64,000 nucleotides of DNA from Arcobacter porcinus. Its GTDB lineage: Bacteria > Campylobacterota > Campylobacteria > Campylobacterales > Arcobacteraceae. Shown piece by piece: positions 463 through 24,590 of this stretch (its first letter is position 1; each line of letters opens with the position of its first letter). A program made the position numbers and the translations under genes. Under the pieces are notes generated by a model. The model worked only from the letters and a program-made list of their open reading frames with translations. It had not been told where the DNA came from and ran no database searches. Where the stretch lies: NCBI RefSeq assembly GCF_004299785.2, contig NZ_CP036246.2:1798001-1862000 (forward strand), in the 5' to 3' direction.

Positions 463-511
463 TTTAATCCGTTCTTATAATCATTATTTCGAATATTTTT
501 ATAATATGTAA

Positions 512-3340: not shown

Positions 3341-3341
3341 A

Positions 3342-5519: not shown

Positions 5520-6306
5520 GAATCTCCTTATATGTTTTAAATAAAAATATTGCCATTGTTCCTGCCAGATTTACAGCTAATTCACTATGTCTTTCTTTTG
5601 GTTTAATATTTAGACCATTTGTACCATGAGAATCGCCTAACTTATTTCTCATTTGACCTAATCCATTAACTATTGCACTTGAACCACCAAGTATCTGCTT
5701 GAAAATCTTTTCTTGATGTTGTTCAGGAGCTAGATTCAATAGCTTTGCTACTTCTTTATATAGCTCTGATAAATCACTACTTTCACTAAATGATATTTTT
5801 TGCTCTTTTAATATGTATTTTAAAATACTTTCAATGAGTGTTCTTGAAATAGTAATAGCACCTTCAGGGTCTTTTACTTTTCTATCTAATGCTTTTTCCC
5901 ATTGTTCATGTATAAAATCTTCTGAAAATATAATATTTTTCTTAAATATTTCAATCGTTTTATTTAGTTTAATAATCTCAATATTTTTTCTATTTATTTT
6001 AATTTCATATCCATCATACTCTAAATATAAATTAAACTCGGTTATAAACCCCTCAAGTCTTTCATAATCAGAAATAAAATTAATAGGGCTAAATAAATCT
6101 ATTAAACATTGTTTCATATACGTTGTATCATTTATTTCAGCTAATTTCATATCTGTATAAACCCATCTTGATGGAAATCCTTGAGAATATATATCATCAG
6201 AAATATATGAATAAAAAAAGCTAACTAATTTTGGACCTGATTTATATTCAATCTCTTCATTAATTAGTTTTCTAAGTTTTTCAAGTGTTTTAGCATTTAA
6301 TTTCAT
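5506..6306 (-). CDS. Abortive infection family protein with Abi_C domain
   Basis: The C-terminal 120 residues fit the Abi_C domain (PF14355): a helix with TLIESILKYILKE (156-168), a spacer, then GGSSAIVNGLGQMRNKLGDSHG (207-228). The conserved Arg-Asn and Asp-Ser-His lie where the domain has its HEPN-like RNxxxDSHG signature. The N-terminal 130 residues are unrecognised. Abi_C proteins are found in phage-exclusion loci, and an RNase-type toxin role is plausible but not shown. It begins 12 bp after hsdS and its last 14 bp overlap the DUF4268 gene. The plus-strand frame inside it is a shadow. Confidence 0.75.
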   Translation of the reverse strand: MKLNAKTLEKLRKLINEEIEYKSGPKLVSFFYSYISDDIYSQGFPSRWVYTDMKLAEINDTTYMKQCLIDLFSPINFISDYERLEGFITEFNLYLEYDGYEIKINRKNIEIIKLNKTIEIFKKNIIFSEDFIHEQWEKALDRKVKDPEGAITISRTLIESILKYILKEQKISFSESSDLSELYKEVAKLLNLAPEQHQEKIFKQILGGSSAIVNGLGQMRNKLGDSHGTNGLNIKPKERHSELAVNLAGTMAIFLFKTYKEIHVSN

Positions 6307-6318
6307 TTTATTATTTAC

Positions 6319-7581: not shown

Positions 7582-7813
7582 TATCACTACCTTTTAAAAG
7601 TAGATTTCTTTCCCTTAAAAGCTCTTTTTGTAGCTCTTCAACTGTTGGTAAATATTTATTACTCACTAAGTCTTGAATTGAAAAAGTTAGGTAATTGCTT
7701 AAACTCAATTTGAGAGACGCCGTCTCCTGAGTTAGTAATCTTGAGTTGATTAAAAGATTTCTAATATCTTCTATCATTTGATTATTGATTATATTACTCA
7801 TAACATATTCCAT
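7574..7813 (-). CDS. Small protein between hsdM and hsdS, possible DUF1016 (YhcG-like) remnant
   Basis: A 79-residue reading frame fills the gap between hsdM and hsdS. Its ATG overlaps the hsdM stop in a TAATG arrangement; an ATG at 7801 is an alternative start. The C-terminal segment YLPTVEELQKELLRERNLL resembles the tail of DUF1016/YhcG PDDEXK proteins, and the N-terminal QMIEDIRNLLINSR resembles their first helix. Those full-length proteins are often found inside hsd operons. My best guess is an internally deleted remnant that keeps only the two ends. It could equally be a genuine small operon protein of unknown role. Confidence 0.5.
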   Translation of the reverse strand: MEYVMSNIINNQMIEDIRNLLINSRLLTQETASLKLSLSNYLTFSIQDLVSNKYLPTVEELQKELLRERNLLLKGSDNE

Positions 7814-9375: not shown

Positions 9376-9435
9376 ATATAGTAACCCCTAAATATCAAAA
9401 ATAGTGTGTAATTTTATAGTGTTAAATTAGTATTA

Positions 9436-9441
9436 ATTATA
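9436..9441 (-). promoter_or_regulatory. Probable -10 box of the hsdM defence operon
   Basis: On the minus strand there is a perfect TATAAT about 60 bases upstream of the hsdM ATG, preceded by an A/T-rich stretch and no convincing -35 box, as is common in Campylobacterota. This would give a leader of roughly 54 nt. A second weaker candidate (CTATAAA, about 9413-9420) lies closer to the gene. Inferred from sequence only. Confidence 0.4.
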
Positions 9442-9526
9442 CTTTTTTGAAACTTCTAAGGTGGTTAAATGAGTAATTTATAAATGTATTAATTTAGGAA
9501 ATGTGGATTTGATGTATAGATTTGAT

Positions 9527-9559
9527 ATAACCTGTAGAGGATTAACCTCTACAAGTTAT
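9527..9559. repeat. Inverted repeat, 14-bp arms with 5-base loop
   Basis: The arms ATAACCTGTAGAGG and CCTCTACAAGTTAT pair along all 14 positions with one G-T wobble around the loop ATTAA. It lies in the 250-bp gap between hsdM and the composite transposon. No T-run follows on either strand, so it is not a textbook terminator. It could be a terminator of a lost gene, a regulator site or an old recombination site. Confidence 0.5.
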
Positions 9560-9625
9560 GCAAATATTATATTTAGTATGTTTATATTAATTGAATTAAT
9601 TGTCAATATTTTTATTTCTTATAAA

Positions 9626-11177
9626 CTTAACTTTCGCACGTTAAATTGATTAAAATTGTAGCTAAATATCCCTAAATAATTACTTCTATATGTAATAATC
9701 TCATTCTTGTTGACATCAACTTGATTTGCTTGGTTTTTCTGTTTTAAATTCTTTACAAATCCCTTAAATAGGAACTTTTAGATATAATATCTATTATATT
9801 AAAGGGTAAGAATGCAGATAGAATCTAAGATAATCGGTATCATAAACGACAAACTAAAGAATCCAATTTATGAAACATTGCGACTATTAAATATGAAAAC
9901 GATTTTAACAAAGAGCAATTTTTCTAAAAAAGAGGGAGTTGCTGTTCATATGGTTGTATTACACTTTGTATATATGCTAGTTATGAATAAAAAAATATCA
10001 ACTTTTATGGATCAGAGTAATGATAGCTTTAAAAAAGATGTCTATTACAGACTACTTGCTAATGCTCACTACAACTGGAGAAAACTATTATCACTTAGTT
10101 CTTTAAAGATTTTATCACTGCTTCATAAAGTACAAGATGCAAAGCTAGTAAGAGTTCTTATACTTTATGATACTGTTGAAGATAAAGTTGGTAAAAATAT
10201 AGAGGGAAGTTGTGACAACCTTTGGAGCAATAAAGCAAAGAGAAAAATCAGAGGTGTAAATGTTGTATCACTAAACTATAGTGATGGTTATTCAAATTTT
10301 ATGTTGGACTTTGCAATTGCTATGAATAATTATGCAAGGGTAAAGATAGAAGAGTTTACAAATATTATTGATCATCGAACCAATGCACATAAGCGAAGAT
10401 TGGAAAGCTTAAAAGGGAAATCACAAATTGCTATAGAGATGATTAAAAGAGCAGTAGCTAGTGGTATATATGCAGATTATCTGCTTGTGGATAGTTGGTA
10501 TTCTAAACCTGTGTTTATAGAAACAATGAATGAGCTAGGATTGCAAGTTATTTCAAGAATGGTAAACAATGATAGAATCTGGAACTTCACAGGGGAGAAA
10601 AAAACTCTTGATGGTATCTATAACAAGTTTAAAAAGCTTAAAACTATTAAGATGGGTCAATATGGCAAAAAGATAAAGTTTGAATACTTCGGGGTCATAG
10701 TTGAACATAAAAAAGCAGGAAAATTAAAAATTGTTTTTATAAAAACCAAAGAGAATCTCATCCCTATTGTATCTACAAACTTAGACTTGAGTGATGAAGA
10801 AATTATCGATATTTACAAACGACGATGGGATATAGAACAAGGGTATAAAGAACTTCGTGAACACTTTGGGTTTGGTAAAGAAGAAAATCGAATTTATGAA
10901 GCACTTATTGCTCGCATAACACTCTCATTTTTTACATACAATGTTGTTAGCTATATAAATCGTATCAGTAATGAACCAAAAACTATTGGTGGATTGTTTA
11001 AAGATCTAGAATGTGAACTTCACACCTTGGCAATTGCTATGCAAGCATTTTTAGCTATTTTAGATGAGATTGCAAAAATTGAAGAAGTTGTCAATAGAAA
11101 TGAGGATTTTACAGCAATAATCGATCTATTAAGAGATGTGACTGGAAAACTACTTGGTTTTAGGTGCGAAAGTTAAG
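9626..11177 (+). mobile_element. IS4-like element, copy 1 (left end of composite)
   Basis: This is a 1552-bp insertion sequence with imperfect terminal repeats (CTTAACTTTCGCAC at 9626-9639; the complement at 11164-11177) and one intact transposase gene. Its coding part is essentially identical to copies 2 and 3. Its 186-bp leader, however, differs from theirs at many positions and is 11 bp shorter, so it is a mosaic or a sister isoform. Confidence 0.85.
9812..11176 (+). CDS. IS4-like DDE transposase, copy 1 (intact)
   Basis: A 454-residue DDE transposase that cuts and joins the IS ends. Likely catalytic residues are Asp120 (in LILYDTVEDK), Asp227 (LLVDSWYS) and Glu342, the last inside a YREK-like signature Y335-x2-R338-x3-E342. 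The ATG follows AAAGGGTAAGA, a strong ribosome site, and a TATAAT-like box precedes it. The stop codon lies inside the right terminal repeat. The protein is identical to that of copy 3. The IS4 superfamily call is from the signature; a subgroup is not assigned. Confidence 0.88.
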   Translation: MQIESKIIGIINDKLKNPIYETLRLLNMKTILTKSNFSKKEGVAVHMVVLHFVYMLVMNKKISTFMDQSNDSFKKDVYYRLLANAHYNWRKLLSLSSLKILSLLHKVQDAKLVRVLILYDTVEDKVGKNIEGSCDNLWSNKAKRKIRGVNVVSLNYSDGYSNFMLDFAIAMNNYARVKIEEFTNIIDHRTNAHKRRLESLKGKSQIAIEMIKRAVASGIYADYLLVDSWYSKPVFIETMNELGLQVISRMVNNDRIWNFTGEKKTLDGIYNKFKKLKTIKMGQYGKKIKFEYFGVIVEHKKAGKLKIVFIKTKENLIPIVSTNLDLSDEEIIDIYKRRWDIEQGYKELREHFGFGKEENRIYEALIARITLSFFTYNVVSYINRISNEPKTIGGLFKDLECELHTLAIAMQAFLAILDEIAKIEEVVNRNEDFTAIIDLLRDVTGKLLGFRCES

Positions 11178-11257
11178 AAGGTAATTTTATAATATGTTTG
11201 CTAATAAGATATTAATGATGAATATTTTTTAATAAGTAGATAATGATTTGTTAATAC

Positions 11258-12046
11258 TTAATAACTATTAAATATCCTCTTGGCTAATTTAACAAATTCT
11301 TCAACTTCTGCAAGTTTATTTGACCAGTCAACAATTTCTAAGCCAAGATATTCATTATGTGCTAATTGTAAGATTTCTGCATTCGTGCCTGATAATTGGG
11401 GCAATAACCATTGTGCAGCTTGGCTTTTACCAATAATTTGACCACTTTCTCGGCTGAATAATATACGTGCTAATGTCAAAATGATATTTCGTTCATCGCC
11501 AATTAAATCTTTTGGTTCTTGCCATATCTGTAAGGTTTCTTCAAATGTTCTGAATAAATCTTCTATCGGAATAATTGGCAATAGGTTTTGTGCTGATTCT
11601 CCTATTAAGGCAACGCCTTTATTTCTAACTTTTGATAATAAAATCACAAGATCAATATCATATTCACTCTTCCCATATTGCCCTGCGATCATTTCATCAC
11701 GTAACCATTCTCCAAATTGTAATTCACGTTTAGGAGGAAAATTCCATGGAATTATTTCTGAATAAATAACTATCGTTACCTCAAGTGCCCTATATATTTT
11801 AGAACTCAAGGGATAAGCAGATATTTCTAATAATCCTTTCATTAGAAATGCACGATCATTAAACGACAAGGGTTGTTTAATTACTACCAAAAAGTCTATA
11901 TCACTGTAAGGTTGTAATCCATCTTCTACTGCTGAACCATATAAATATACAGCTAATAAATTATCTAACAAACATTGAGAAATAAATGTCTGCACTTTTT
12001 GTACTTGTTGCTGCTCAATTTCATTTAAATTAAGTATTGAATACAT
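11258..12046 (-). CDS. AadA-like aminoglycoside nucleotidyltransferase, ANT(3'')/ANT(9) type
   Basis: This 262-residue enzyme matches the whole length of the AadA family. AadA enzymes adenylylate streptomycin and spectinomycin in the cytoplasm. Key features are the LYGSAVEDGLQPYSDIDFLV nucleotidyltransferase motif (35-54; Gly37, Ser38, Asp49, Asp51), the catalytic-base region LEVTIV (Glu89), IIPWNFPPKRELQFGEW, and a C-terminal GDERNIILTLARI helix. It is clearly not one of the common integron aadA genes: many positions differ, and there is no attC site or integron gene nearby. It lies between IS copies 1 and 2, antisense to both transposases. Resistance is inferred from family; the drug range needs testing. 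Confidence 0.85.
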   Translation of the reverse strand: MYSILNLNEIEQQQVQKVQTFISQCLLDNLLAVYLYGSAVEDGLQPYSDIDFLVVIKQPLSFNDRAFLMKGLLEISAYPLSSKIYRALEVTIVIYSEIIPWNFPPKRELQFGEWLRDEMIAGQYGKSEYDIDLVILLSKVRNKGVALIGESAQNLLPIIPIEDLFRTFEETLQIWQEPKDLIGDERNIILTLARILFSRESGQIIGKSQAAQWLLPQLSGTNAEILQLAHNEYLGLEIVDWSNKLAEVEEFVKLAKRIFNSY

Positions 12047-13766
12047 AAATGATCAACTCTTAATATTACAAAAATATTTTGATAAACTTGTAAGTTGTAA
12101 TTTTGAATTAGATTTTTTAATATATAGTATTAAAGCATTATATAATATAACATTAGAACGAATGTCTGAATATCCTATATTAATAGTTGCTAAATGATCA
12201 ATAATTTCTTTATCCTTTATAATAAATCAGTAACGATATTATTTTTATTCTTAGTCTTGACTTATTTTACTTAACTTTCGCACGTTAAGTTGATTAAAAT
12301 TGTAGCTAAATCTCCCTAAAATATTACTGCTATAGGTAATAATATTATCCTTGTTGACATAAAAATAATTTAGTTGTTTTTCTATGATATTTTTCTATTT
12401 TGAACTCTCAATAAATCCCTTAAATAGGTATTTTAGCTATAATATCTATTATATTAAAGGGTAAGAATGCAGATAGAATCTAAGATAATCGGTATCATAA
12501 ACGACAAACTAAAGAATCCAATTTATGAAACATTGCGACTATTAAATATGAAAACGATTTTAACAAAGAGCAATTTTTCTAAAAAAGAGGGAGTTGCTGT
12601 TCATATGGTTGTATTACACTTTGTATATATGCTAGTTATGAATAAAAAAATATCAACTTTTATGGATCAGAGTAATGATAGCTTTAAAAAAGATGTCTAT
12701 TACAGACTACTTGCTAATGCTCACTACAACTGGAGAAAACTATTATCACTTAGTTCTTTAAAGATTTTATCACTGCTTCATAAAGTACAAGATGCAAAGC
12801 TAGTAAGAGTTCTTATACTTTATGATACTGTTGAAGATAAAGTTGGTAAAAATATAGAGGGAAGTTGTGACAACCTTTGGAGCAATAAAGCAAAGAGAAA
12901 AATCAGAGGTGTAAATGTTGTATCACTAAACTATAGTGATGGTTATTCAAATTTTATGTTGGACTTTGCAATTGCTATGAATAATTATGCAAGGGTAAAG
13001 ATAGAAGAGTTTACAAATATTATTGATCATCGAACCAATGCACATAAGCGAAGATTGGAAAGCTTAAAAGGGAAATCACAAATTGCTATAGAGATGATTA
13101 AAAGAGCAGTAGCTAGTGGTATATATGCAGATTATCTGCTTGTGGATAGTTGGTATTCTAAACCTGTGTTTATAGAAACAATGAATGAGCTAGGATTGCA
13201 AGTTATTTCAAGAATGGTAAACAATGATAGAATCTGGAACTTCACAGGGGAGAAAAAAACTCTTGATGGTATCTATAACAAGTTTAAAAAGCTTAAAACT
13301 ATTAAGATGGGTCAATATGGCAAAAAGATAAAGTTTGAATACTTCGGGGTCATAGTTGAACATAAAAAAGCAGGAAAATTAAAAATTGTTTTTATAAAAA
13401 CCAAAGAGAATCTCATCCCTATTGTATCTACAAACTTAGACTTGAGTGATGAAGAAATTATCGATATTTACAAACGACGATGGGATATAGAACAAGGGTA
13501 TAAAGAACTTCGTGAACACTTTGGGTTTGGTAAAGAAGAAAATCGAATTTATGAAGCACTTATTGCTCGCATAACACTCTCATTTTTTACATACAATGTT
13601 GTTAGCTATATAAATCGTATCAGTAATGAACCAAAAACTATTGGTGGATTGTTTAAAGATCTAGAATGTGAACTTCACACCTTGGCAATTGCTATGCATG
13701 ATCTGGCTACACTAAATAGGACATAGAAAATAACTATGTTAAAATTAGTGAAATCGGAGAATAAAA

Positions 13767-14060
13767 ATGAGAAAAAGTAATTACTCACAAGAGTTTAGAG
13801 AATCAACAATAAAGTTTTGTATTGATAATAGTGATAGATCAATTTCAAGTATAGCAAGAGATTTAGGACTAAATAAAGGAACTTTAGCTTTATGGGTAAA
13901 TGAGTACAAAGCTAAAAATAATTTACTACCTGTAAATGATTTAAAAAATGAGACTCTAGAGCAAGAGAATAAAAGACTAAAAAAAGAACTTGCAATTTTA
14001 AAACAAGAAAAAGAGATATTAAAAAAGGCAGCAGCATACTTTGCAAAAGAAACTCTGTAA
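13767..14060 (+). CDS. IS3-family transposase OrfA
   Basis: A 97-residue helix-turn-helix protein: [19 protein letters not shown] begins the DNA-binding domain, followed by a leucine-zipper-like helix rich in Lys, Glu and Leu (about 63-90), as in IS3 OrfA proteins. OrfA binds the IS ends and regulates transposition. Near its end the slippery heptamer A-AAA-AAG (14021-14027) lies in the correct frame for a -1 shift into orfB. Confidence 0.9.
14021..14027 (+). promoter_or_regulatory. Programmed -1 ribosomal frameshift site (A AAA AAG)
   Basis: The heptamer is read in the orfA frame as A-AAA-AAG, the classic slippery sequence of IS3-family elements. After a -1 slip the frame is open without stops into orfB (...[13 protein letters not shown]...), giving an OrfAB fusion that is the true transposase. 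Confidence 0.8.
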
Positions 14061-14107
14061 AGTATGCATGGATAAAAGAACACTCAAAGAGTTTTAATGT
14101 ACAACTT

Positions 14108-14935
14108 ATGTGTAAACTATTTAAAGTTAGTAGAAGTTGTTACTACAACTGGATTGACAAAGGTTGTATTGTAAATAAAATTGATAAAGAGCTAAATGAA
14201 CTTGTAAAAAACATTTTTGAACAAGCAAGAGCAACTTATGGAACAAGAAGATTGAAAGAGGTTTTAAAACAAAGATATGGTCTTATAGTTTCAAGAAGGA
14301 AACTTCAAAGAACTCTGAAATATTTAAATCTAAAAGTAAAAATGAAACGAAGATTTAAAGTAATTACAACAACATCAAATCATACTCTACCAATTGCACC
14401 AAATCATCTAAATAGAGATTTTTATAGCTCACAAATAGATAAAGTTTATGTTGGAGACATTACATATATTCCAACAAATGAGGGATGGTTATATTTGGCT
14501 GTTGTAATCGATATTTACTCAAGAAAAGTTGTTGGATGGTCTATGAATTATAGTTTAAAAACTTCACTTGTTAATGATGCACTATTAATGGCATTAAAAA
14601 GAAGAAATCCTTCTAAAGGACTAATTTATCATACTGATAGAGGAAGTCAGTATGCCTCTTATGAACATAAAAATCTTTTAGAAAAATATGGGATAGTTCA
14701 AAGTATGAGTAGAAAAGGAGATTGCTGGGATAATGCAGTTGCAGAGAGTTTTTTTCATTCTCTAAAAACTGAATTAATTCATCATGAAAAGTTTTTAACA
14801 CGCTCACAAGCAAATGAAAAAATATTTGAATATATAGAGATTTTTTACAATAGACAAAGATTACATTCATCAAATGGATATATGTCTCCAAGTGAATTTG
14901 AAGATAAAATGTTACGTTTAGAAATGGTTAGTTAA
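14108..14935 (+). CDS. IS3-family transposase OrfB (rve integrase core)
   Basis: A 275-residue catalytic half with the integrase core: [10 protein letters not shown] (first Asp), [12 protein letters not shown] (second Asp) and [17 protein letters not shown] (Glu), the D,D(35)E triad. An HTH_21-type region ([19 protein letters not shown]) precedes it. The ATG at 14108 is the first in the frame, but coding similarity extends upstream to the frameshift site. The protein is therefore probably made mainly as an OrfAB fusion. Confidence 0.9.
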
Positions 14936-15139
14936 ATTATAAATTTTTTGTCCTATAAAGTGTTGACAGATCAGCAAGCATTTTTAGCTATTTTAGATGA
15001 GATTGCAAAAATTGAAGAAGTTGTCAATAGAAATGAGGATTTTACAGCAATAATCGATCTATTAAGAGATGTGACTGGAAAACTACTTGGTTTTAGGTGC
15101 GAAAGTTAAGTAAGATTAGCAAAAAGGGATTAAAAAACA

Positions 15140-15376
15140 ATGACAAAAGAAGAAATGAAAAATTATGCAATTAAAACAATTGAAAATATGGAAGATTTAC
15201 GAGATGATTTGGCAAGGATTAATCTTAGTTCAAAGTTAGATATTTTAAATGAAAATTTAAGAAAAATTATTGATGAAAAAACAATTGATCAAAAAGAGTT
15301 TTTTTATTTAATCGAAGATTTACGGGATACGATAATTGATTTTCATTCATACATTTTTAGTGAGTTACCAAACTAG
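15140..15376 (+). CDS. Hypothetical small helical protein in plasmid remnant
   Basis: A 78-residue frame with an AAAAAGGGATT ribosome site 10-20 bases before the ATG. The product is acidic and appears entirely alpha-helical, with no recognised motif. It lies directly after IS copy 2 and ahead of the promoter-palindrome-mob stretch. It is therefore probably part of the same plasmid fragment, perhaps an accessory or addiction-type gene. No function can be assigned. Confidence 0.45.
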   Translation: MTKEEMKNYAIKTIENMEDLRDDLARINLSSKLDILNENLRKIIDEKTIDQKEFFYLIEDLRDTIIDFHSYIFSELPN

Positions 15377-15401
15377 GTAATTCATTTTAAGTGGTAAACT
15401 C

Positions 15402-15430
15402 TTGCCAAAATTTTAGCCTTGTGCTATAAT
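15402..15430 (+). promoter_or_regulatory. Sigma-70 promoter, TTGCCA-17-TATAAT with extended -10
   Basis: TTGCCA at 15402-15407, a 17-base spacer and TATAAT at 15425-15430, preceded by TGC (extended -10). Unlike typical host promoters it has a good -35 box. It points at the palindrome and the truncated mob-like gene. Confidence 0.65.
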
Positions 15431-15451
15431 TTTCAACTAGCTCTCCGTTAG

Positions 15452-15477
15452 GGGTGCTATGTTGCAACATAGCACCC
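15452..15477. repeat. Perfect 26-bp palindrome, possible oriT or operator
   Basis: GGGTGCTATGTTG is followed directly by its reverse complement with no spacer. It starts about 15 bases after the expected transcription start of the promoter at 15402 and lies 80 bp before the mob-like gene. A smaller hairpin, TGGCT...AGCCA, follows near 15495-15520. The position is typical of either an origin of transfer next to a relaxase gene or a repressor-binding site. Confidence 0.6.
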
Positions 15478-15557
15478 TAAAGAGTGCGATGTTGTTTTGG
15501 CTGATGGGGACAAGCCACCACCAACCAAAATCTCCAGTTAAAAAGGAAAATTATTAT

Positions 15558-15827
15558 ATGCGAAAAGGAACTTTTTCTGTACAAACTGCAACTGCATTTT
15601 CAAGCAAACATAACTCAAGAGAATTAGCCCCAAAATATTTAGTTGATAGTTCTGCAAAAAACTATTATGAACTTATAAAAAAAGATGAAGATTTTATACA
15701 AGAAGCACAAGTAATTTACAAAGAAAAAATTAGACAAACTATGCAAAAAAAACAAGTTGAAAATTTAGTACAAGAAACTATTTTAACTTTGCAACCACAC
15801 CAAGTAAATCTATTACCTTATTATTAA
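15558..15827 (+). pseudogene. Truncated plasmid mobilisation-like (relaxase N-terminus) gene
   Basis: The frame opens upstream, but the ATG at 15558 has an AAAGGAAAA site seven bases ahead and lies after the palindrome, so I start there. The 89-residue product (MRKGTFSVQTATAFSSKHNSR...) resembles, from memory, the start of Mob proteins on small Campylobacterota plasmids. It stops soon after a conserved QxHQVN-like stretch, where the pUB110-like sequence begins, as expected for a fusion junction. The family assignment is tentative. It carries no complete relaxase catalytic motif. Confidence 0.4.
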
Positions 15828-15857
15828 TTCAATTCGCTCATAATTAATCCTTTTTCT

Positions 15858-16802
15858 TATTACGCAAAATGGCCCGATTTAAGCACACCCTTTATTCCGT
15901 TAATGCGCCATGACAGCCATGATAATTACTAATACTAGGAGAAGTTAATAAATACGTAACCAACATGATTAACAATTATTAGAGGTCATCGTTCAAAATG
16001 GTATGCGTTTTGACACATCCACTATATATCCGTGTCGTTCTGTCCACTCCTGAATCCCATTCCAGAAATTCTCTAGCGATTCCAGAAGTTTCTCAGAGTC
16101 GGAAAGTTGACCAGACATTACGAACTGGCACAGATGGTCATAACCTGAAGGAAGATCTGATTGCTTAACTGCTTCAGTTAAGACCGAAGCGCTCGTCGTA
16201 TAACAGATGCGATGATGCAGACCAATCAACATGGCACCTGCCATTGCTACCTGTACAGTCAAGGATGGTAGAAATGTTGTCGGTCCTTGCACACGAATAT
16301 TACGCCATTTGCCTGCATATTCAAACAGCTCTTCTACGATAAGGGCACAAATCGCATCGTGGAACGTTTGGGCTTCTACCGATTTAGCAGTTTGATACAC
16401 TTTCTCTAAGTATCCACCTGAATCATAAATCGGCAAAATAGAGAAAAATTGACCATGTGTAAGCGGCCAATCTGATTCCACCTGAGATGCATAATCTAGT
16501 AGAATCTCTTCGCTATCAAAATTCACTTCCACCTTCCACTCACCGGTTGTCCATTCATGGCTGAACTCTGCTTCCTCTGTTGACATGACACACATCATCT
16601 CAATATCCGAATAGGGCCCATCAGTCTGACGACCAAGAGAGCCATAAACACCAATAGCCTTAACATCATCCCCATATTTATCCAATATTCGTTCCTTAAT
16701 TTCATGAACAATCTTCATTCTTTCTTCTCTAGTCATTATTATTGGTCCATTCACTATTCTCATTCCCTTTTCAGATAATTTTAGATTTGCTTTTCTAAAT
16801 AA
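15858..16802. other. pUB110-like segment carrying aadD
   Basis: Beyond aadD itself, the downstream stretch (GGCCCGATTTAAGCACACC, GCGCCATGACAGCCATGAT and so on, from about 15858) and the upstream stretch up to TTTTCTAAATAA (16802) match pUB110 sequence that I recall. This gives a transferred block of about 0.95 kb, cut on the right by IS copy 3 and on the left by the mob-like remnant. Exact borders need an alignment. Confidence 0.6.
15993..16754 (-). CDS. aadD: Kanamycin/tobramycin nucleotidyltransferase ANT(4')-Ia
   Basis: The enzyme transfers AMP to the 4'-hydroxyl of kanamycin, neomycin, tobramycin and related drugs. The sequence agrees along its length with the Staphylococcus plasmid pUB110 enzyme as I know it. 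It has Gly38-Ser39, metal ligands Asp50 and Glu52, and the catalytic base Glu145. Asp80 and Thr130 are the wild-type residues, not the thermostable D80Y/T130K forms. I chose the GTG start, which gives the canonical 253 residues and is spaced nine bases from AGGGA. An in-frame ATG at 16763 abuts that site. Codon use and G+C are clearly higher than in the neighbours. IS copy 3 begins 48 bp upstream of the GTG. Confidence 0.95.
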   Translation of the reverse strand: MNGPIIMTREERMKIVHEIKERILDKYGDDVKAIGVYGSLGRQTDGPYSDIEMMCVMSTEEAEFSHEWTTGEWKVEVNFDSEEILLDYASQVESDWPLTHGQFFSILPIYDSGGYLEKVYQTAKSVEAQTFHDAICALIVEELFEYAGKWRNIRVQGPTTFLPSLTVQVAMAGAMLIGLHHRICYTTSASVLTEAVKQSDLPSGYDHLCQFVMSGQLSDSEKLLESLENFWNGIQEWTERHGYIVDVSKRIPF

Positions 16803-18365
16803 CTTAACTTTCGCACGTTAAGTTGATTAAAATTGTAGCTAAATCTCCCTAAAATATTACTGCTATAGGTAATAATATTATCCTTGTTGACATAAAAATA
16901 ATTTAGTTGTTTTTCTATGATATTTTTCTATTTTGAACTCTCAATAAATCCCTTAAATAGGTATTTTAGCTATAATATCTATTATATTAAAGGGTAAGAA
17001 TGCAGATAGAATCTAAGATAATCGGTATCATAAACGACAAACTAAAGAATCCAATTTATGAAACATTGCGACTATTAAATATGAAAACGATTTTAACAAA
17101 GAGCAATTTTTCTAAAAAAGAGGGAGTTGCTGTTCATATGGTTGTATTACACTTTGTATATATGCTAGTTATGAATAAAAAAATATCAACTTTTATGGAT
17201 CAGAGTAATGATAGCTTTAAAAAAGATGTCTATTACAGACTACTTGCTAATGCTCACTACAACTGGAGAAAACTATTATCACTTAGTTCTTTAAAGATTT
17301 TATCACTGCTTCATAAAGTACAAGATGCAAAGCTAGTAAGAGTTCTTATACTTTATGATACTGTTGAAGATAAAGTTGGTAAAAATATAGAGGGAAGTTG
17401 TGACAACCTTTGGAGCAATAAAGCAAAGAGAAAAATCAGAGGTGTAAATGTTGTATCACTAAACTATAGTGATGGTTATTCAAATTTTATGTTGGACTTT
17501 GCAATTGCTATGAATAATTATGCAAGGGTAAAGATAGAAGAGTTTACAAATATTATTGATCATCGAACCAATGCACATAAGCGAAGATTGGAAAGCTTAA
17601 AAGGGAAATCACAAATTGCTATAGAGATGATTAAAAGAGCAGTAGCTAGTGGTATATATGCAGATTATCTGCTTGTGGATAGTTGGTATTCTAAACCTGT
17701 GTTTATAGAAACAATGAATGAGCTAGGATTGCAAGTTATTTCAAGAATGGTAAACAATGATAGAATCTGGAACTTCACAGGGGAGAAAAAAACTCTTGAT
17801 GGTATCTATAACAAGTTTAAAAAGCTTAAAACTATTAAGATGGGTCAATATGGCAAAAAGATAAAGTTTGAATACTTCGGGGTCATAGTTGAACATAAAA
17901 AAGCAGGAAAATTAAAAATTGTTTTTATAAAAACCAAAGAGAATCTCATCCCTATTGTATCTACAAACTTAGACTTGAGTGATGAAGAAATTATCGATAT
18001 TTACAAACGACGATGGGATATAGAACAAGGGTATAAAGAACTTCGTGAACACTTTGGGTTTGGTAAAGAAGAAAATCGAATTTATGAAGCACTTATTGCT
18101 CGCATAACACTCTCATTTTTTACATACAATGTTGTTAGCTATATAAATCGTATCAGTAATGAACCAAAAACTATTGGTGGATTGTTTAAAGATCTAGAAT
18201 GTGAACTTCACACTTTGGCAATTGCTATGCAAGCATTTTTAGCTATTTTAGATGAGATTGCAAAAATTGAAGAAGTTGTCAATAGAAATGAGGATTTTAC
18301 AGCAATAATCGATCTATTAAGAGATGTGACTGGAAAACTACTTGGTTTTAGGTGCGAAAGTTAAG
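16803..18365 (+). mobile_element. IS4-like element, copy 3 (right end of composite)
   Basis: An intact 1563-bp copy with terminal repeats at 16803-16816 and 18352-18365. The leader matches copy 2. A single base difference from copies 1 and 2 was noticed in the coding part (T at 18214). Its right flank, TTATAAA, repeats the left flank of copy 1. Confidence 0.88.
17000..18364 (+). CDS. IS4-like DDE transposase, copy 3 (intact)
   Basis: The protein is identical over 454 residues to copy 1, with the same Asp120, Asp227 and Glu342 and the same AAAGGG ribosome site. A TATAAT at 16971-16976 is the likely -10 box, 24 bases before the ATG. As an intact copy at the composite's right end, it can supply transposase for the whole unit. 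Confidence 0.88.
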   Translation: MQIESKIIGIINDKLKNPIYETLRLLNMKTILTKSNFSKKEGVAVHMVVLHFVYMLVMNKKISTFMDQSNDSFKKDVYYRLLANAHYNWRKLLSLSSLKILSLLHKVQDAKLVRVLILYDTVEDKVGKNIEGSCDNLWSNKAKRKIRGVNVVSLNYSDGYSNFMLDFAIAMNNYARVKIEEFTNIIDHRTNAHKRRLESLKGKSQIAIEMIKRAVASGIYADYLLVDSWYSKPVFIETMNELGLQVISRMVNNDRIWNFTGEKKTLDGIYNKFKKLKTIKMGQYGKKIKFEYFGVIVEHKKAGKLKIVFIKTKENLIPIVSTNLDLSDEEIIDIYKRRWDIEQGYKELREHFGFGKEENRIYEALIARITLSFFTYNVVSYINRISNEPKTIGGLFKDLECELHTLAIAMQAFLAILDEIAKIEEVVNRNEDFTAIIDLLRDVTGKLLGFRCES

Positions 18366-18538
18366 TTATAAAATAAATAATGCTAAATTTATTCTACTAA
18401 AGAATTAGTAAAAATTGCTTACAGAGTACCATTATTAATGGAATGTAGCTTATTGTACTAAAAATATTTCAAATATAAATTTTACTTTAATCAAAAATAA
18501 TAGAAACACATATCATTTAATTAATATTTAAAGTTATT

Positions 18539-18973
18539 TTAATCTTGTCCTCTATCAACGGGAGGTAAAGGCTTATCTAATTGAACTGGACTCATTCCAT
18601 GTGCATATGCATTATATGCCCATCTTGCAAACTGATAAAGCAAATCAGCATTCTCTTTCTTTAATCTTTCATTTTCAGCCTCAATAGTTCTAAGTTTTTC
18701 AGTGAGAATATACTCTTTTTGAGATAAAGATGCATCTATTCTTCCAGTATTTTCTCTTTCCCTTATAATTCGTTCTTTAGCAATATCATATGCTCTTTTA
18801 ATCCGCGAATGTTTTGATAGAGTCTGCCTTGTATATGATTCTCCAGTTCTTATATAAATAGCTTCAATTAAATCTTCCCATGTAACTTTTCCATCCATTC
18901 CATCTAGAATACTTACTGCTACTTCTATATTATCATCTGTCAAATTTTTTGAACGGTTTCTTTTCTCTGTCAT
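18539..18973 (-). CDS. Small coiled-coil protein of recombinase operon (GmtX-like)
   Basis: A 144-residue protein, last of the four-gene recombinase operon, starting 10 bp after the GmtZ-like gene. The N-terminal part looks like a DNA-binding helical domain (TWEDLIEAIYIRTGESYTRQTLSKHSRIKRAYD). Residues about 85-115 form a coiled coil (EKLRTIEAENERLKKENADLL). Its size, position and layout match the third partner (GmtX) of gamma-mobile-trio systems and also recall TnpC of Tn554. It has no recombinase active site. Assignment is by context; the molecular role of this family is not known to me. Confidence 0.55.
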   Translation of the reverse strand: MTEKRNRSKNLTDDNIEVAVSILDGMDGKVTWEDLIEAIYIRTGESYTRQTLSKHSRIKRAYDIAKERIIRERENTGRIDASLSQKEYILTEKLRTIEAENERLKKENADLLYQFARWAYNAYAHGMSPVQLDKPLPPVDRGQD

Positions 18974-18983
18974 TAAAATCCTT

Positions 18984-21047
18984 TTATAAATCTTCTAATA
19001 ATTCTCTCATCTCATCTAAATTAATGGATGATTCACCTACTATTTCTTTATTCCTAATTTGTGCTTGCTCACTTTGTGAGATTGAAGGAGCATCAGAAAT
19101 TTGAATAAGAGTTCCATCTTTAACATTGTCATTATCAAATATGTCACATAGTTGTTTTAATTTTTCTAATTCAATAGATTGATGTTTAATCCACCTATTA
19201 GCTCCTACATGTCCTTCTTGTTGAGCTTTTTTTGCAATTTCTAAAGCTTCTTCAACTTCTATTTTTCTTTGCCTTATTCTTTCATTACTATTTTTATCAC
19301 CCTTAATACAAACTTGCTCAGTACAATTTAAACAATCCATATGCAGTTGACAAGGCATCATAGAAAAATCATGAATACAAACACCAAAATCAGTTTTATG
19401 AGCTGTTCTTACCTTAAGCTGTGCATATTCATCACGAGATATAACTACTTTCTTTTTAATCCCTTCTATGTTATTCAGTTGACTCATCAGCATTTCTTCA
19501 TTTCCGACAGCTTTTTGAACTAATAATAACATTTCATTCGCAGAAACATGATCATAGGCTCTATTTTGGCTAACTTCTTTTCGCCCTGACCACTTTGCAA
19601 TATCGAGTTGACTTGCACCACCTTTTTGTGCTAAAGTATTTAAATAATGCCTAAATTGATGTGTAGTAACTTTAATAGGATCTCCATTAGATTCTTTAAA
19701 TCCAAATCTTTCAAAAATAGAAGATTTAGATATTCCTTGTCTAGAGCCTAATGCATCATTAATAAAACCAATATTAAAATTATCTATTGATGGTAAAATT
19801 GTTGATTTTATATAATTATATTCATTTAGTCTTTGAATTAATAAAGTTTCAGAATACTTAAATCCCTTTTCTTTGTTTATATATGGGAAATCTTTAGGTA
19901 AAGACTCTAGAATAGCTTTTTCTAATGCTTTAAAACCTACTATAACCTTCTTATTTACTATTTCATATTGTATATTATAAATTTTACATAAATTTGCCAC
20001 ACCTTTTAACTCTTTACCAAACAAAATTAAAGAAATATCTTTTGTAGTTAACAACGTTTTATTACGCATATACTTTAATTCTTCTGGTATATATAAATCA
20101 TTAGGATTTTCTTCATACCATTTAGCAACTTTTCTTGCTTCTTTAGTTAATTCTCTAATTTGATTAATTGCTTTCTTTACAACATCTACCATTGAAGGAA
20201 TTATCCATTTAACCATTGGTTCAGCACCTTTTTCTGGATACCATCTTAAACCATATTTTTCTTTACCATCTAATCCTTTTTGTACAACTTCACAATACTC
20301 TTGTAACAATAAAACCTCACCTATTCTATTAGGAGCTCCAAATAAAATAGCTATGATTGATGTTATTAAAATATCTTTTGGTTCTGTTGCTTTTAAAAAT
20401 ATCTCTGGTAATGCTTCTAGAGCTCTTTCTGAAGGCATTTTTTCATTTCTTCTATCATCTGCTTTTTTACCAACTCTTAGTGCATCATTTGGTCTTTTAG
20501 CTGAATTCTTCCAATCTATAGGTATCTTTGAAATCCTTTTTTCAGAAATAAATTGAGCAACTTTTTGTAAAAAAGCTCCTTGTCTATATACTACTGCTTC
20601 CGTGAAATTTTCTTTACCAATTGCAATAGCTCTATTTAAAACATCTGTAGTTATATTTAGAGGATTTGCTGTTTGTGTCATTTCAATTAAAGCTTGTTCT
20701 AAAAGCCTCATTGAAGCAATTAAAGGTACTAAACTTTTAACTGGCTCCATTGCTTGTTTGTATCTTAAATAAGCCTTTGTAAAACTTAAAAATGGCTCTT
20801 TCAATGGAATAAGATTATCTATAGTAAATTTATTAAATTCTTTAGAGCATTTAAGATTAGAAAATATTATTTTTTGTTTTGTATTTTGTTTTCCTGGATT
20901 TGTTTCTGTTATATCCCAAATATTAGAATCAAAAAGTAAATCCTTACCAAAAATTTCTAAATCATTTTTTGCCATATTTATAAAATCAAACAATATTTCT
21001 TCTGAACTAAAATCTTCATTTACGGAATAGTATTTACTTTGCGACAT
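18984..21047 (-). CDS. Large tyrosine recombinase-like protein (GmtZ-like)
   Basis: A 687-residue protein with a C-proximal tyrosine recombinase fold: Arg241 (APNRIGEVLLL), His463-x2-Arg466 (THQFRHYLNTLA), Trp486 and Tyr498 (NRAYDHVS). A large insertion separates the first Arg from the HxxR box. After the catalytic domain comes a cysteine cluster (Cys557, 566, 572, 575, 580) likely to bind zinc, then a helical tail. Length and layout fit the VPA1269/GmtZ family of gamma-mobile-trio islands. It overlaps the preceding gene by 14 bp, so the two are translationally coupled. Confidence 0.65.
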   Translation of the reverse strand: MSQSKYYSVNEDFSSEEILFDFINMAKNDLEIFGKDLLFDSNIWDITETNPGKQNTKQKIIFSNLKCSKEFNKFTIDNLIPLKEPFLSFTKAYLRYKQAMEPVKSLVPLIASMRLLEQALIEMTQTANPLNITTDVLNRAIAIGKENFTEAVVYRQGAFLQKVAQFISEKRISKIPIDWKNSAKRPNDALRVGKKADDRRNEKMPSERALEALPEIFLKATEPKDILITSIIAILFGAPNRIGEVLLLQEYCEVVQKGLDGKEKYGLRWYPEKGAEPMVKWIIPSMVDVVKKAINQIRELTKEARKVAKWYEENPNDLYIPEELKYMRNKTLLTTKDISLILFGKELKGVANLCKIYNIQYEIVNKKVIVGFKALEKAILESLPKDFPYINKEKGFKYSETLLIQRLNEYNYIKSTILPSIDNFNIGFINDALGSRQGISKSSIFERFGFKESNGDPIKVTTHQFRHYLNTLAQKGGASQLDIAKWSGRKEVSQNRAYDHVSANEMLLLVQKAVGNEEMLMSQLNNIEGIKKKVVISRDEYAQLKVRTAHKTDFGVCIHDFSMMPCQLHMDCLNCTEQVCIKGDKNSNERIRQRKIEVEEALEIAKKAQQEGHVGANRWIKHQSIELEKLKQLCDIFDNDNVKDGTLIQISDAPSISQSEQAQIRNKEIVGESSINLDEMRELLEDL

Positions 21048-22584
21048 CTACTATTACCTCAATCTTATTATCTTTATACTCCATACAAGCTTTTACAATT
21101 TGAGCTACCGCCATAATTGTTTTATCATTAACACTTGCAATTCTGTAATCAGTTACCTCTAGTAATCTTTCTCTTTCTCTAAGTAAGTGTTGTAACACTG
21201 CTTCATGTGGTCCATCTATCCATGCTTGAAAACTACTACAAGTATAGCAAGCCAATGGTGACATCTGCCCACAGAAACTATGACTCCCACATTTTCCTGA
21301 AGGAGTACAAGTTTTATCAATACTTGGATTTATGATATCAGCTTCAGGATCATTTGCACGAATAGCTTTTGATTTATCTTTAACTAATGTTCCTGAAAAT
21401 GCTTGCGCAATAGGAGCCATATACAATGCTAGTGCTCTATCTAATCTTTCTATTATTTCTGGTCTTGACTCTACATACACTTGTGCATTTTGTGTATCAC
21501 TATGATCTAGTATCTCTGCGATTATAAGACTTCCATGTCCTTCTACTGCAGCTCGTGTTCCAATTGTTCTTCTAAATCGAATTGGAGTTATATGCATAAA
21601 ATCATTTGTTCTTTCTGATTTTAATTTTAAATGATTAAGTACATTTTCGATTTTAGAACTTAATTGAGATGTTGTTAAATGATATTTCAATAAATAATTA
21701 TTATCTTCATTATAACTTATTGAAGTATTATTAAAAAAAAGAGGTGCTTCACTTACATTTGGGAAAATATCTTTAAATTTATTTTTGATTTCCGCAGTAT
21801 AATTTAATATTAGGTTTGAAAAACTAACAGGGACAATTCTTTTTTTGAATTCACTTCTTACACCTTTTCTATTCTTTACTCTTGGAATATTTAAAAAAAC
21901 TTCATAACTACCATCATTTCGCTTAGCAAATATTACATCTTTTATTTTCATTTGAGCAAATTGAATTGGTCTTGAACCATAAATCATAAAAAGCCATACA
22001 AGAATATAATCATCCGTCTTTATTTCATTTTTTGCATAAGAATTATTAATTGCTGTTTGAATTAACTCTAACTCAATATCTGTAAATGGCCCCATAAAAG
22101 GATCCATTGTTGCAATTGCTTCTCCTTTAGGATTCCCTTTAATCTTTATTTCTCGAAGATATCCATAAGCTTCTTTTGTTATACAAGAATCACCCATCTC
22201 ATACCATTTTTTTAAGAATCCCGATAAAGAGCCAAGATACCAATCTCGTTCTTTACCTAAATATCCCCTAAAATTAATAAGATTCATATCAGTAATTATA
22301 GAAATTTTATTTTCAAAATTATCTGATATATATTTACAAAATATTTTTAAATATTTATACATATTTTCAGAATGTCTAGAAGAATGATTCTCTAAATACC
22401 ATTTAAAAACATTTTTACAACTATACAAATTTTTATTATCAAGATTTATTTTTTTGAAATCAAATATTATTCTTCTATTTGCATCGTTAATATCCCATAA
22501 ATCTTTATTTGGGTCAAAAACAACACCATTTTTTGTTTGACTAACATGAAGAAAGTGATTAATACTTTTTAAATCATTGATCAT
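21034..22584 (-). CDS. Tyrosine recombinase with C-terminal Cys cluster (GmtY-like)
   Basis: A 516-residue recombinase: Arg205 (IYGSRPIQFAQM), the box II arginine Arg338 (TPIRFRRTIGT), His361 (ILDHSDTQ) and the nucleophile Tyr370 (AQVYVE). The usual first His of box II is Ile335 here, so catalysis may differ or rely on partners. A zinc-ribbon-like set of cysteines follows (Cys426, 432, 438, 446, 449). It overlaps the first recombinase by 4 bp (ATGA). Best fit is the GmtY partner of the trio. A RIT-type element recombinase is the main alternative. Confidence 0.65.
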   Translation of the reverse strand: MINDLKSINHFLHVSQTKNGVVFDPNKDLWDINDANRRIIFDFKKINLDNKNLYSCKNVFKWYLENHSSRHSENMYKYLKIFCKYISDNFENKISIITDMNLINFRGYLGKERDWYLGSLSGFLKKWYEMGDSCITKEAYGYLREIKIKGNPKGEAIATMDPFMGPFTDIELELIQTAINNSYAKNEIKTDDYILVWLFMIYGSRPIQFAQMKIKDVIFAKRNDGSYEVFLNIPRVKNRKGVRSEFKKRIVPVSFSNLILNYTAEIKNKFKDIFPNVSEAPLFFNNTSISYNEDNNYLLKYHLTTSQLSSKIENVLNHLKLKSERTNDFMHITPIRFRRTIGTRAAVEGHGSLIIAEILDHSDTQNAQVYVESRPEIIERLDRALALYMAPIAQAFSGTLVKDKSKAIRANDPEADIINPSIDKTCTPSGKCGSHSFCGQMSPLACYTCSSFQAWIDGPHEAVLQHLLRERERLLEVTDYRIASVNDKTIMAVAQIVKACMEYKDNKIEVIVDVAK

Positions 22585-23888
22585 TTCTTGTACTCCATTC
22601 TAGAATTCTTAAACAGATTTTCTGCCATTTCATTAATTACTTCATTTGCTTTTTCTCTAACATGTCTTTTTGTATAATTTTCAGCCATTTTTGAACCATC
22701 TCTCCATCCCATTTGATAATTTCTAATTTGTTGTTCTCTTTCTTCTGTTATCTCTTTTTTATCCATAAGCTTAGAAAAATTATCATTCCAAGTATGTCTT
22801 AATGTATGTGCAGTAAAATCATCAGGTAAAGTAGGAATTTTTTTTCTCAATCTTCTGAACATTACTGATATAGCTTCTAGACTTAATGGATTACCATCTG
22901 TTCCAGAAACTATTAAATACTCATTTTTCTTTGCTCCTCTTATTTTTGATCTATAATCTAAAATATAATGTTCAGTAATTTCCATTATTTTATCAGGTAT
23001 TGCCAATATTCTACTTTTAGTTTTTACATTAGGCTTATTTATTCTTGGATCATCAATATCATCTGCTCGTCTTAGAATTTTAACTTGCTTTTTTCTAAAA
23101 TCAATATCTGATATTTTTATATTTAGAAGCTCACCTTTTCTTATTCCAAACTTTATTAACCATACAAATATTACTTCATTTCTTGATTTTAGGAAGTCTC
23201 CTCTAAAAGGATTATTTTCAGACTTTCTATTAATCAAATCCAAAAGAGTTTTCATTTCTTCTTCTGATAATCCTTCTTTTCCATCTATTAATGAATTAGA
23301 TGACTTTGCAGGAATGCGTGCTTCAATTTTTTCTTTAAAATCTTTTAAATTGTCTTTAAGTGTTAAGAAATTTAAACTATTTATCTTAGCTCTTCCTAAG
23401 TATCCATTAGCTAACCAAATCACATAATCTCTGATTGTTCTTAATCTATTTCCTGCAGTAGCTTTATCAACAAAATTTCTTTTATCAAGATAATTAGCAC
23501 TTCTAAACTTTTCTAACGACTTTAATGATAAAGTTTTAAATAATGGTTTATCATTCTTAGTATTTATAATATCATCAATAATATCATCTATTTTAAATTT
23601 ACAGTCTTCAACAATTCCTTCTAATTCATAATGATGAAATATTATGCCATCTTCAAATCTTTTAAGAAAAAATTCTTCACTCATATAATATTTCTCTAAC
23701 AGAAGTTTAAAGAAAGAAATATTTCGTAGTGTGTATTTAATTGTAGCTGCAGCTTTACCTTTTGATCTTACTTGGGTTAAAATAAAAAGTGTAGAGTTAA
23801 TATCAGGTATTCCAGTATCTGAATTTATTAGTAAGGGAAATATTTCTCCTGTTGAAGTTATAATTGTTTTTTCTTTAAATCTTTTCAT
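22581..23888 (-). CDS. Tyrosine site-specific recombinase (integrase), first gene of operon
   Basis: A 435-residue integrase with a complete active site: Arg250 (FGIRKGELL), a lysine in VKTKSR (about 289-291), His361-x2-Arg364 (TAHTLRHTW), Trp395 and Tyr405 (AENYTKRH). The N-terminal 200 residues form the core-binding half. The start has GGAA seven bases upstream and a TATAAT further up. It is the recombinase closest to ssb, the presumed island edge, and reads inward. It probably does the strand exchange at the attachment site together with its two relatives. Confidence 0.85.
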   Translation of the reverse strand: MKRFKEKTIITSTGEIFPLLINSDTGIPDINSTLFILTQVRSKGKAAATIKYTLRNISFFKLLLEKYYMSEEFFLKRFEDGIIFHHYELEGIVEDCKFKIDDIIDDIINTKNDKPLFKTLSLKSLEKFRSANYLDKRNFVDKATAGNRLRTIRDYVIWLANGYLGRAKINSLNFLTLKDNLKDFKEKIEARIPAKSSNSLIDGKEGLSEEEMKTLLDLINRKSENNPFRGDFLKSRNEVIFVWLIKFGIRKGELLNIKISDIDFRKKQVKILRRADDIDDPRINKPNVKTKSRILAIPDKIMEITEHYILDYRSKIRGAKKNEYLIVSGTDGNPLSLEAISVMFRRLRKKIPTLPDDFTAHTLRHTWNDNFSKLMDKKEITEEREQQIRNYQMGWRDGSKMAENYTKRHVREKANEVINEMAENLFKNSRMEYKK

Positions 23889-23916
23889 AATTTATTTCCA
23901 CTTTTATAGTGTTGTC

Positions 23917-23922
23917 ATTATA
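23917..23922 (-). promoter_or_regulatory. Probable -10 box of recombinase operon
   Basis: A perfect TATAAT on the minus strand, about 29 bases before the ATG of the first recombinase gene, with an AT-rich stretch upstream and no -35 box. It would give a leader of about 22 nt. Confidence 0.5.
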
Positions 23923-24000
23923 ATAAATTTAAAAAATTTAGTCAAGTAAATGTGTAAATAAAATTTTCGAAAGAATTTAAAAAGATATATAAGTAGAATC

Positions 24001-24015
24001 CCCTTAGAAAGGGGA
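24001..24015. terminator. Hairpin between ssb and the island recombinases
   Basis: CCCCTT-AGA-AAGGGG is a 6-bp stem. On the minus strand it lies about 60 bases after the ssb stop, followed by T-rich but not continuous sequence. It is a likely weak terminator for the rnr-holA-rpsF-ssb operon. The surrounding 189 bp (23889-24077) contain no gene. If the island is cut at one side here, this is where the junction should be. Confidence 0.45.
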
Positions 24016-24077
24016 TATAAAAGAATTAATATTATATATAATATAAAATATATTTACATATTATATTAGTGTACCTA

Positions 24078-24590
24078 TTAAAACGGTATTTCGTCATCGA
24101 TATCAATTTCAGGAATATTTGAAGCAGCTCTTTGCTGATTCATATTTCCACCATAGTTGTCATACGAAGCTTGGTTATTATTATACTCTTGTTGCTGAGG
24201 AGCTTGATTATAGTTTTGGTTTTGATTGTATGAATTTTGATTATATCCACCACCATCATTTGAACCTTTACTATCAAGCATTTTCATCTCATCAACTCTT
24301 AAAGTATGTCTATTTCTATTGCTTCCATCTTGAGCAGTCCATTGTTCATAAACAAGTCTACCTTCTAATAAAACTTTAGAACCTTTTCTTAAGTATTGAT
24401 TTGCAACTTCTGCTATTCTTCCAAAAATATTAAACTCCAAAAAGCATACTTCCTCTTTTTGCTCTCCTGTTTGTGCTTTATATTTATATGAAGTTGCAAT
24501 AGAACTTCTAGCAATAGCAGCACCACTTGGAAGATATTTTAGTTCAATATCTCTTGTAAGATTTCCTACCATAATTACTTTATTATACAT
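24078..24590 (-). CDS. ssb: Single-stranded DNA-binding protein
   Basis: An OB-fold protein of 170 residues: MYNKVIMVGNLTRDIELKYLPSG at the start, a Gln/Asn-rich linker (about 115-155) and the acidic tail DIDDEIPF that recruits partner proteins. It coats single-stranded DNA in replication, repair and recombination. It follows rpsF by 22 bp. In most Campylobacterota rpsR comes next, but here the recombinase operon follows. The C-terminus is intact, so the insertion did not damage ssb. Confidence 0.96.
   Translation of the reverse strand: MYNKVIMVGNLTRDIELKYLPSGAAIARSSIATSYKYKAQTGEQKEEVCFLEFNIFGRIAEVANQYLRKGSKVLLEGRLVYEQWTAQDGSNRNRHTLRVDEMKMLDSKGSNDGGGYNQNSYNQNQNYNQAPQQQEYNNNQASYDNYGGNMNQQRAASNIPEIDIDDEIPF

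What the first reader, a model, noticed from the sequence alone, without database searches (positions are those of the whole stretch)
18539..23888. Gamma-mobile-trio-like recombinase operon in a Campylobacterota genome
Three tyrosine recombinase-like proteins (435, 516, 687 residues) overlapping or nearly so, plus a 144-residue coiled-coil protein, match the layout of GmtY/GmtZ/GmtX islands, which are known mainly from gammaproteobacteria and carry defence cargo. Finding it beside a defence operon in Campylobacterota would widen the range of that island type. The extra complete integrase at the front makes it a quartet.
Basis: partly seen in the sequence, partly recalled or inferred. Interest (0 to 1): 0.7.

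Follow-up and report, generated by a model that had tools for sequence, protein, structure and literature searches.

The report
GInt resistance island in Arcobacteraceae genome
This is a known kind of mobile DNA island (a GInt, moved by three recombinases and a helper protein) seen here for the first time in the Campylobacterota genomes I could search; it sits in the tail of the ssb gene and carries phage-defence and aminoglycoside-resistance genes.

Summary
The four genes are real and at the stated coordinates. They are not a gamma-mobile-trio. [quoted passage not shown] Bardaji 2017, PMC5385486): three tyrosine recombinases plus a small coiled-coil protein. All four align, in the same order, with operons in Pseudomonas, Azospirillum and other bacteria. 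The NCBIfam scan gave no Gmt hit. The operon starts 190 nt after the ssb stop codon, and 55 of 66 related operons also sit directly behind ssb. I could define both ends: an island of about 25.96 kb lies between ssb and rpsR, bounded by the 9-nt repeat ACCGTTTTA, which falls in the codons of SSB's conserved C-terminal tip. In 22 relatives ssb and rpsR are 11-24 nt apart. The cargo is a type I restriction/defence cluster and IS-borne aminoglycoside-resistance genes. It is the only such operon found in samples of 397 phylum and 399 order genomes. So: new member of a known kind, with a host-range extension. The insertion splits the rpsF-ssb-rpsR operon, and the right end holds a promoter-like sequence facing rpsR. 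Excision was not tested.

The parts
1..24087 (-). in-window part of the GInt island (whole island about 25,965 bp, G000:C1:1796124-1822087; its right end lies about 1.9 kb before window base 1)
   Evidence: attL in the window, attR in L037; length; 22 relatives with ssb directly joined to rpsR
24079..24087 (-). attL core ACCGTTTTA, overlapping the last codons of ssb; the second copy (attR) is at G000:C1:1796115-1796123, just upstream of rpsR
   Evidence: relatives carry a single copy, GAAATACCGTTTTAG; the same core position is shown by an empty-site comparison in Pseudomonas plasmids
23889..24078 (-). left-end non-coding region, 190 nt, 17% GC: TGTAAA subterminal motif 19 nt after the ssb stop codon, a terminator-like hairpin (24000-24013), and a TTGACT-17-TATAAT promoter (23945-23917) for ginA
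22581..23888 (-). ginA, 435-aa tyrosine recombinase; catalytic set R250-K289-H361-R364-W395-Y405
21034..22584 (-). ginB, 516-aa tyrosine recombinase (NF041502); R205-K237-R336-H361-Y370 conserved; four invariant Cys near the C terminus
18984..21047 (-). ginC, 687-aa large tyrosine recombinase; R241-K273-H463-R466-W486-Y498 conserved, plus a Cys-rich C-terminal segment
18539..18973 (-). ginD, 144-aa helical/coiled-coil partner
9400..18538 (.). resistance part of the cargo: three IS4-family copies (ORFs 9812-11176, 12467-13726 truncated, 17000-18364), an IS3-type element (13767-14935), an aminoglycoside adenylyltransferase-like gene (11258-12046 -) and ANT(4')-Ia (15993-16763 -)
512..9375 (-). 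defence part of the cargo: hsdM (7813-9375), hsdS (6319-7587), AbiJ/Abi_C-like (5506-6306), PDC-S11/DUF4268 (4395-5519), Shedu-like DUF4263 (3342-4394), hsdR (512-3340); an AbiV gene follows outside the window (L037:3804-4463)
24078..24590 (-). host ssb, the target gene; its product keeps the normal ...EIPF end

Best explanation
It is a GInt: a site-specific genomic island moved by its own ginABCD operon and inserted in the 3' tail of ssb in an Arcobacteraceae genome (probably Aliarcobacter, inferred). Shown: operon, homology, conserved catalytic residues, ends, intact sites in relatives, cargo. Inferred from the GInt literature: GinA, GinB and GinC bind the att sites, cut about 6 nt apart in CCGTTT and exchange strands, with GinD as the TnpC-like helper, so the island leaves as a circle and enters other ssb tails. 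The site is the CCN-TTY-stop stretch coding the Pro-Phe tip of SSB, nearly invariant in bacteria, which would explain why related elements use ssb in distant hosts without harming it. In this host the insertion cuts the rpsF-ssb-rpsR operon; the right end carries an outward promoter-like sequence (TTTTTGCTATAAT) about 85 nt inside attR that I think restores rpsR transcription (inference).
For: Four proteins align over their length with the same gene order in P. aeruginosa, Azospirillum and (in part, IS-interrupted) E. coli operons: GinC 32-44%, GinB 33-40%, GinA 30-33%, GinD 33-46% identity. SSB directly upstream in 55 of 66 related loci; all 55 SSBs end in PF, and 39 of 55 have TGT[ATC]A[AC] 17-20 nt after the stop against about 1% background per 9-nt stretch; the window has it at the modal offset, 19. 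The ends share ACCGTTTTA. Empty-site control: P. putida plasmid L139 against P. aeruginosa p3 L033 gives overlap CCGTTC at the same place. 22 relatives have ssb and rpsR 11-24 nt apart. Bardaji 2017 reports the same operon, ssb tails as preferred target, 10-17 nt imperfect repeats, restriction and resistance cargo, and the need for all four genes.
Against: No empty-site strain of this very species was available, so the exact crossover is inferred from sister species. The repeat is 9 nt exact, a little shorter than the published 10-17 nt imperfect repeats. I could not fetch the type GInt (Pst DSM 4166) and compare with it directly. Bardaji reports the first catalytic Arg missing in GinC; here an Arg (R241) is present in all 80 compared GinC proteins, so this family differs from the founding one or the earlier alignment missed it. 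Mobility is not shown.
Confidence: 0.94

Rival explanations
1. A gamma-mobile-trio (GmtY/GmtZ/GmtX) island with an extra integrase.
For: Similar general picture: several recombinases, a small coiled-coil protein and defence cargo.
Against: No Gmt model matched any of the four proteins in NCBIfam at E<=1; GmtY NF040693 has no match in the genome; the four proteins form the complete ginABCD set at the ssb tail.
Confidence: 0.02
2. A Tn554-type transposon or RIT element.
For: GinD has a weak, below-cut-off match to DUF6262 (E 0.0042; 3 of 5 family members), a family I recall as TnpC-like, and Bardaji notes that GinD resembles TnpC. Three adjacent recombinases recall RIT.
Against: Tn554 has two recombinases plus TnpC, RIT three of 315-410 aa with no fourth gene; here there are three of 435, 516 and 687 aa plus GinD, with sequence homology to GInt operons.
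Confidence: 0.02
3. A strand-biased circularizing integrative element (SE: IntA-Tfp-IntB-Srap), a sister type to GInt.
For: Same four-gene logic; median SE size 15.7 kb, GInt 34.9 kb, and this island is 26 kb.
Against: In SEs the second protein, Tfp, lacks the catalytic residues; here all three recombinases keep them. SEs were reported from Gammaproteobacteria only. SE proteins were not compared directly here.
Confidence: 0.02

Closest known systems
GInt (Genomic Island with three Integrases), ginABCD type, especially the ssb-inserted families (Bardaji et al. 2017, PMC5385486)
   Same: Four-gene operon in the same order and strand at one end of the island; ssb 3' tail as target with product unchanged; short imperfect direct repeats; AT-rich other end; restriction and resistance cargo.
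   Different: Host phylum (Campylobacterota not among the groups reported); GinC keeps all catalytic residues; ssb lies in the rpsF-ssb-rpsR operon, so the insertion separates rpsR from it.
GInt-like element on P. aeruginosa plasmid p3 (NZ_CP083369, L033)
   Same: All four proteins homologous (GinC 44%), directly behind ssb, crossover at CCGTT(C/T), restriction gene as cargo.
   Different: Plasmid-borne, about 9.7 kb, Gammaproteobacteria.
[quoted passage not shown]
   Same: Three recombinase-like proteins plus a small helper; short overlap; antimicrobial-resistance cargo.
   Different: Second protein lacks catalytic residues; separate sequence clusters (PMC10214605).
Gamma-mobile-trio (GmtY/Z/X)
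   Same: Recombinase-driven island rich in defence genes.
   Different: No match to GmtY; different gene set.

Membership tests
GInt | ginABCD operon: three tyrosine recombinases plus a small fourth protein, same order and strand | tested here: met
GInt | sequence homology of all four products to GInt operons | tested here: met
   through relatives with the same layout and ssb position; the type element itself (Pst DSM 4166) was not available
GInt | site-specific insertion flanked by short imperfect direct repeats (10-17 nt) | tested here: met
   9-nt exact repeat ACCGTTTTA within less similar flanks; intact single site in 22 relatives; analogous empty site in plasmids
GInt | preferred target at the end of ssb without altering the product | tested here: met
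   SSB still ends EIPF
GInt | cargo begins at ginD; short AT-rich 3' end | tested here: met
   IS/resistance cargo starts within about 0.2 kb of ginD; right-end 270 nt is 21.5% GC
GInt | first catalytic Arg missing in GinC (reported for the alleles studied in 2017; not used there to define GInts) | tested here: not met
   R241 is present in all 80 GinC proteins compared
GInt | excision as a circle; all four genes required | not testable with these tools
   needs PCR and gene removals
Gamma-mobile-trio | GmtY recombinase | tested here: not met
Gamma-mobile-trio | GmtZ and GmtX | tested here: inconclusive
   whole NCBIfam scan gave no Gmt hit, but I did not verify the accessions of these two models; NF040692 'recomb_assoc' also had no match, and its control rang nowhere
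Tn554 | two recombinases plus TnpC | tested here: not met
   three recombinases
RIT | three recombinases of 315-410 aa, no fourth gene | tested here: not met
   435, 516 and 687 aa plus GinD; feature from PMC10214605
SE | second protein (Tfp) lacks RHRY residues | tested here: not met
   GinB keeps R205, R336, H361 and Y370

The most novel reading that the evidence does not exclude
The island has taken over transcription of an essential ribosomal-protein gene: by splitting rpsF-ssb-rpsR and supplying an outward promoter at its right end, it makes S18 expression depend on the element; and all three of its recombinases are catalytically competent, so recombination may use three different active subunits.
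Probability: 0.3. Interest if true: 0.5.

Novelty: new member of a known kind. Interest (0 to 1): 0.36.

Why it matters
It extends GInts to Campylobacterota in the genomes searched, ties the ssb preference to codons for SSB's invariant Pro-Phe tip, and shows a GInt carrying aminoglycoside-resistance genes in a group of food-borne relevance, one of them identical over 999 bp to a staphylococcal plasmid gene. It also raises a testable point: how an element inserted in an essential ribosomal operon keeps rpsR expressed.

Tried and rejected
Gmt: GmtY model tested, no match; NF040692 and NF040694 were tried as guesses for the other Gmt models, but NF040692 is 'recomb_assoc' and NF040694 is 'ribK_Meth', unrelated. 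The single-sequence scan of genome contigs found nothing; the alignment-based scan worked. A weak GinB match in another Campylobacterota genome (G047, L121) proved to be a lone integrase with no gin neighbours. A first right-end pattern found nothing in other loci and a loose one was no better than its reverse-strand control (16 against 19); a tighter one gave 4 against 0, so right ends elsewhere are only suggestive apart from p3. My full Campylobacter-type promoter pattern had no match; the shorter TTTTTGNTATAAT is present once in L037 (expected 0.04; 7 of 200 shuffles reach it) but with one mismatch it is not enriched in the window, and the generic sigma-70 scan did not list the site, so the rpsR promoter remains a suggestion. 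Profile searches of PDB sequences gave nothing for GinC and only weak XerA-like hits for GinB. Two Pseudomonas loci without ssb (L094, L117) were looked at as possible founding-type GInts: the first sits at a histone-deacetylase-like gene, the second is unclear (ORFs read by eye). Placing the window in the GinC tree: nearest rows are beta- and gammaproteobacterial, but the end branch is long and no starred set holds it, so the donor is open.

Full report
Observation. The four ORFs are present as described. The operon reads 435, 516, 687 and 144 aa on the minus strand, with overlaps of 4 and 14 nt and a 10-nt gap. The first two match Phage_integrase; the 516-aa protein is a strong NF041502 member (E 1.8e-163). 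The third has no meaningful match in Pfam, but its AlphaFold model (mean pLDDT 84.6) is a tyrosine recombinase over residues 84-516 (best Z 13.6, Tn1549 integrase; XerH, Cre and lambda integrase follow).

What it is. Searching plasmids with the 687-aa protein gave 87 records, none above 60% identity. Inspecting four of them showed the same gene order, and on three the operon lies directly behind an ssb gene. Literature search led to GInts (PMC5385486): islands defined by ginABCD, three recombinases plus a small protein, all four needed for excision and integration, preferring the end of ssb genes. All four window proteins align with these relatives. A profile search of named genomes found 121 loci encoding relatives, nearly all of the 80 kept being Pseudomonadota, with a few Acidobacteriota and delta-type bacteria. 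In 55 of 66 loci with enough upstream sequence, ssb is the gene directly upstream.

Ends. In the sister species ssb ends GAAATACCGTTTTAG and rpsR starts 11-24 nt later; 22 relatives show this uninterrupted. In the window ssb ends GAAATACCGTTTTAA and then runs into the operon; the other half of the junction, CTAACCGTTTTAGAAAAAAGGAGATAAAATG, lies just upstream of rpsR, about 26 kb away. The island therefore measures about 25,965 bp, bounded by ACCGTTTTA. Next to both cores, reading inward, is TGTAAATA, about 20 and 18 nt from the core. The left motif falls 19 nt after the ssb stop codon, the modal offset among relatives (29 of 55 at exactly 19; 39 of 55 at 17-20; background about 1%). An independent check comes from two Pseudomonas plasmids nearly identical around the site: L139 (empty) and L033 (filled) define an overlap CCGTTC in the same Pro-Phe codons.

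Mechanism. GinA, GinB and GinC each keep the catalytic residues of active tyrosine recombinases, invariant or nearly so in 72-80 homologues. By analogy with the tested GInts, they cut about 6 nt apart in the core and exchange strands with the help of GinD; this is inferred. The target falls in codons for the tip of SSB, whose sequence is nearly invariant in bacteria, which I think explains the repeated use of ssb. Bardaji and colleagues reported GinC to lack the first Arg; the family seen here has an Arg in that position (R241, in APxRxxE), so at least in this group GinC looks catalytically complete. The assignment of R241 rests on the alignment and on its place just before the helix at 242-246; I did not inspect the active site in coordinates.

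Host consequence. In the relatives ssb sits between rpsF and rpsR; the insertion leaves rpsF-ssb on one side and rpsR on the other. The left end has a terminator-like hairpin and a good sigma-70-like promoter for ginA. The right end has TTTTTGCTATAAT facing rpsR, about 85 nt inside attR. The generic promoter scan did not list it, so its role is a proposal.

Cargo. Next to ginD lies a region of IS4-family copies, an IS3-type element, an adenylyltransferase-like gene and ANT(4')-Ia. The IS-adenylyltransferase-IS block is also on an Aliarcobacter butzleri plasmid from poultry meat; the ANT(4')-Ia stretch is identical over 999 bp to pUB110 and many staphylococcal plasmids. Beyond it is a type I restriction system with AbiJ-like, PDC-S11 and Shedu-like genes nested in it, then AbiV. 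Restriction systems and resistance genes are cargo classes already reported for GInts.

Range. GinC of this family was found in 1 of 397 Campylobacterota genomes sampled, and NF041502 above its cut-off in 1 of 399 genomes of the order; in both cases that one is the window's own genome. No paper found in the library reports a GInt in this phylum; this is a limited search. The GinC tree puts the window among beta- and gammaproteobacterial sequences on a long branch without a firmly supported partner.

Verdict.

Noticed in passing
window 15804-16802: 999 bp holding ANT(4')-Ia, 100% identical to Staphylococcus plasmids such as pUB110 (NC_001384), inside a Campylobacterota chromosome: a recent cross-phylum acquisition.
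   Followed up: partly
window 9776-15111: IS4-family copies around an adenylyltransferase-like gene; the same IS-gene-IS block lies on Aliarcobacter butzleri plasmid NZ_CP104333. The second copy is interrupted by an IS3-type element, with its tail reappearing at 14974-15111.
   Followed up: partly
window 3342-6306: Three defence-like genes (AbiJ/Abi_C, PDC-S11/DUF4268, Shedu-like DUF4263) nested between hsdS and hsdR of one type I restriction operon.
   Followed up: no
L037:3804-4463 (-) and 2917-3804 (-): AbiV HEPN gene followed by a 295-aa gene of no recognised family, overlapping by one base: possible two-gene defence unit near the right end of the island.
   Followed up: no
GinB and GinC C-terminal parts (window 21034-22584 and 18984-21047): Sets of invariant cysteines (GinB C432, C438, C446, C449; GinC C557, C566, C572, C575, C580 with H559) in 77-80 homologues, likely metal-binding.
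   Followed up: no
L041 and L043 (Tepidimonas fonticaldi): Two GinC-identical operons about 22 kb apart on one contig, only the first directly behind an ssb-like gene: possibly a tandem or duplicated GInt.
   Followed up: no
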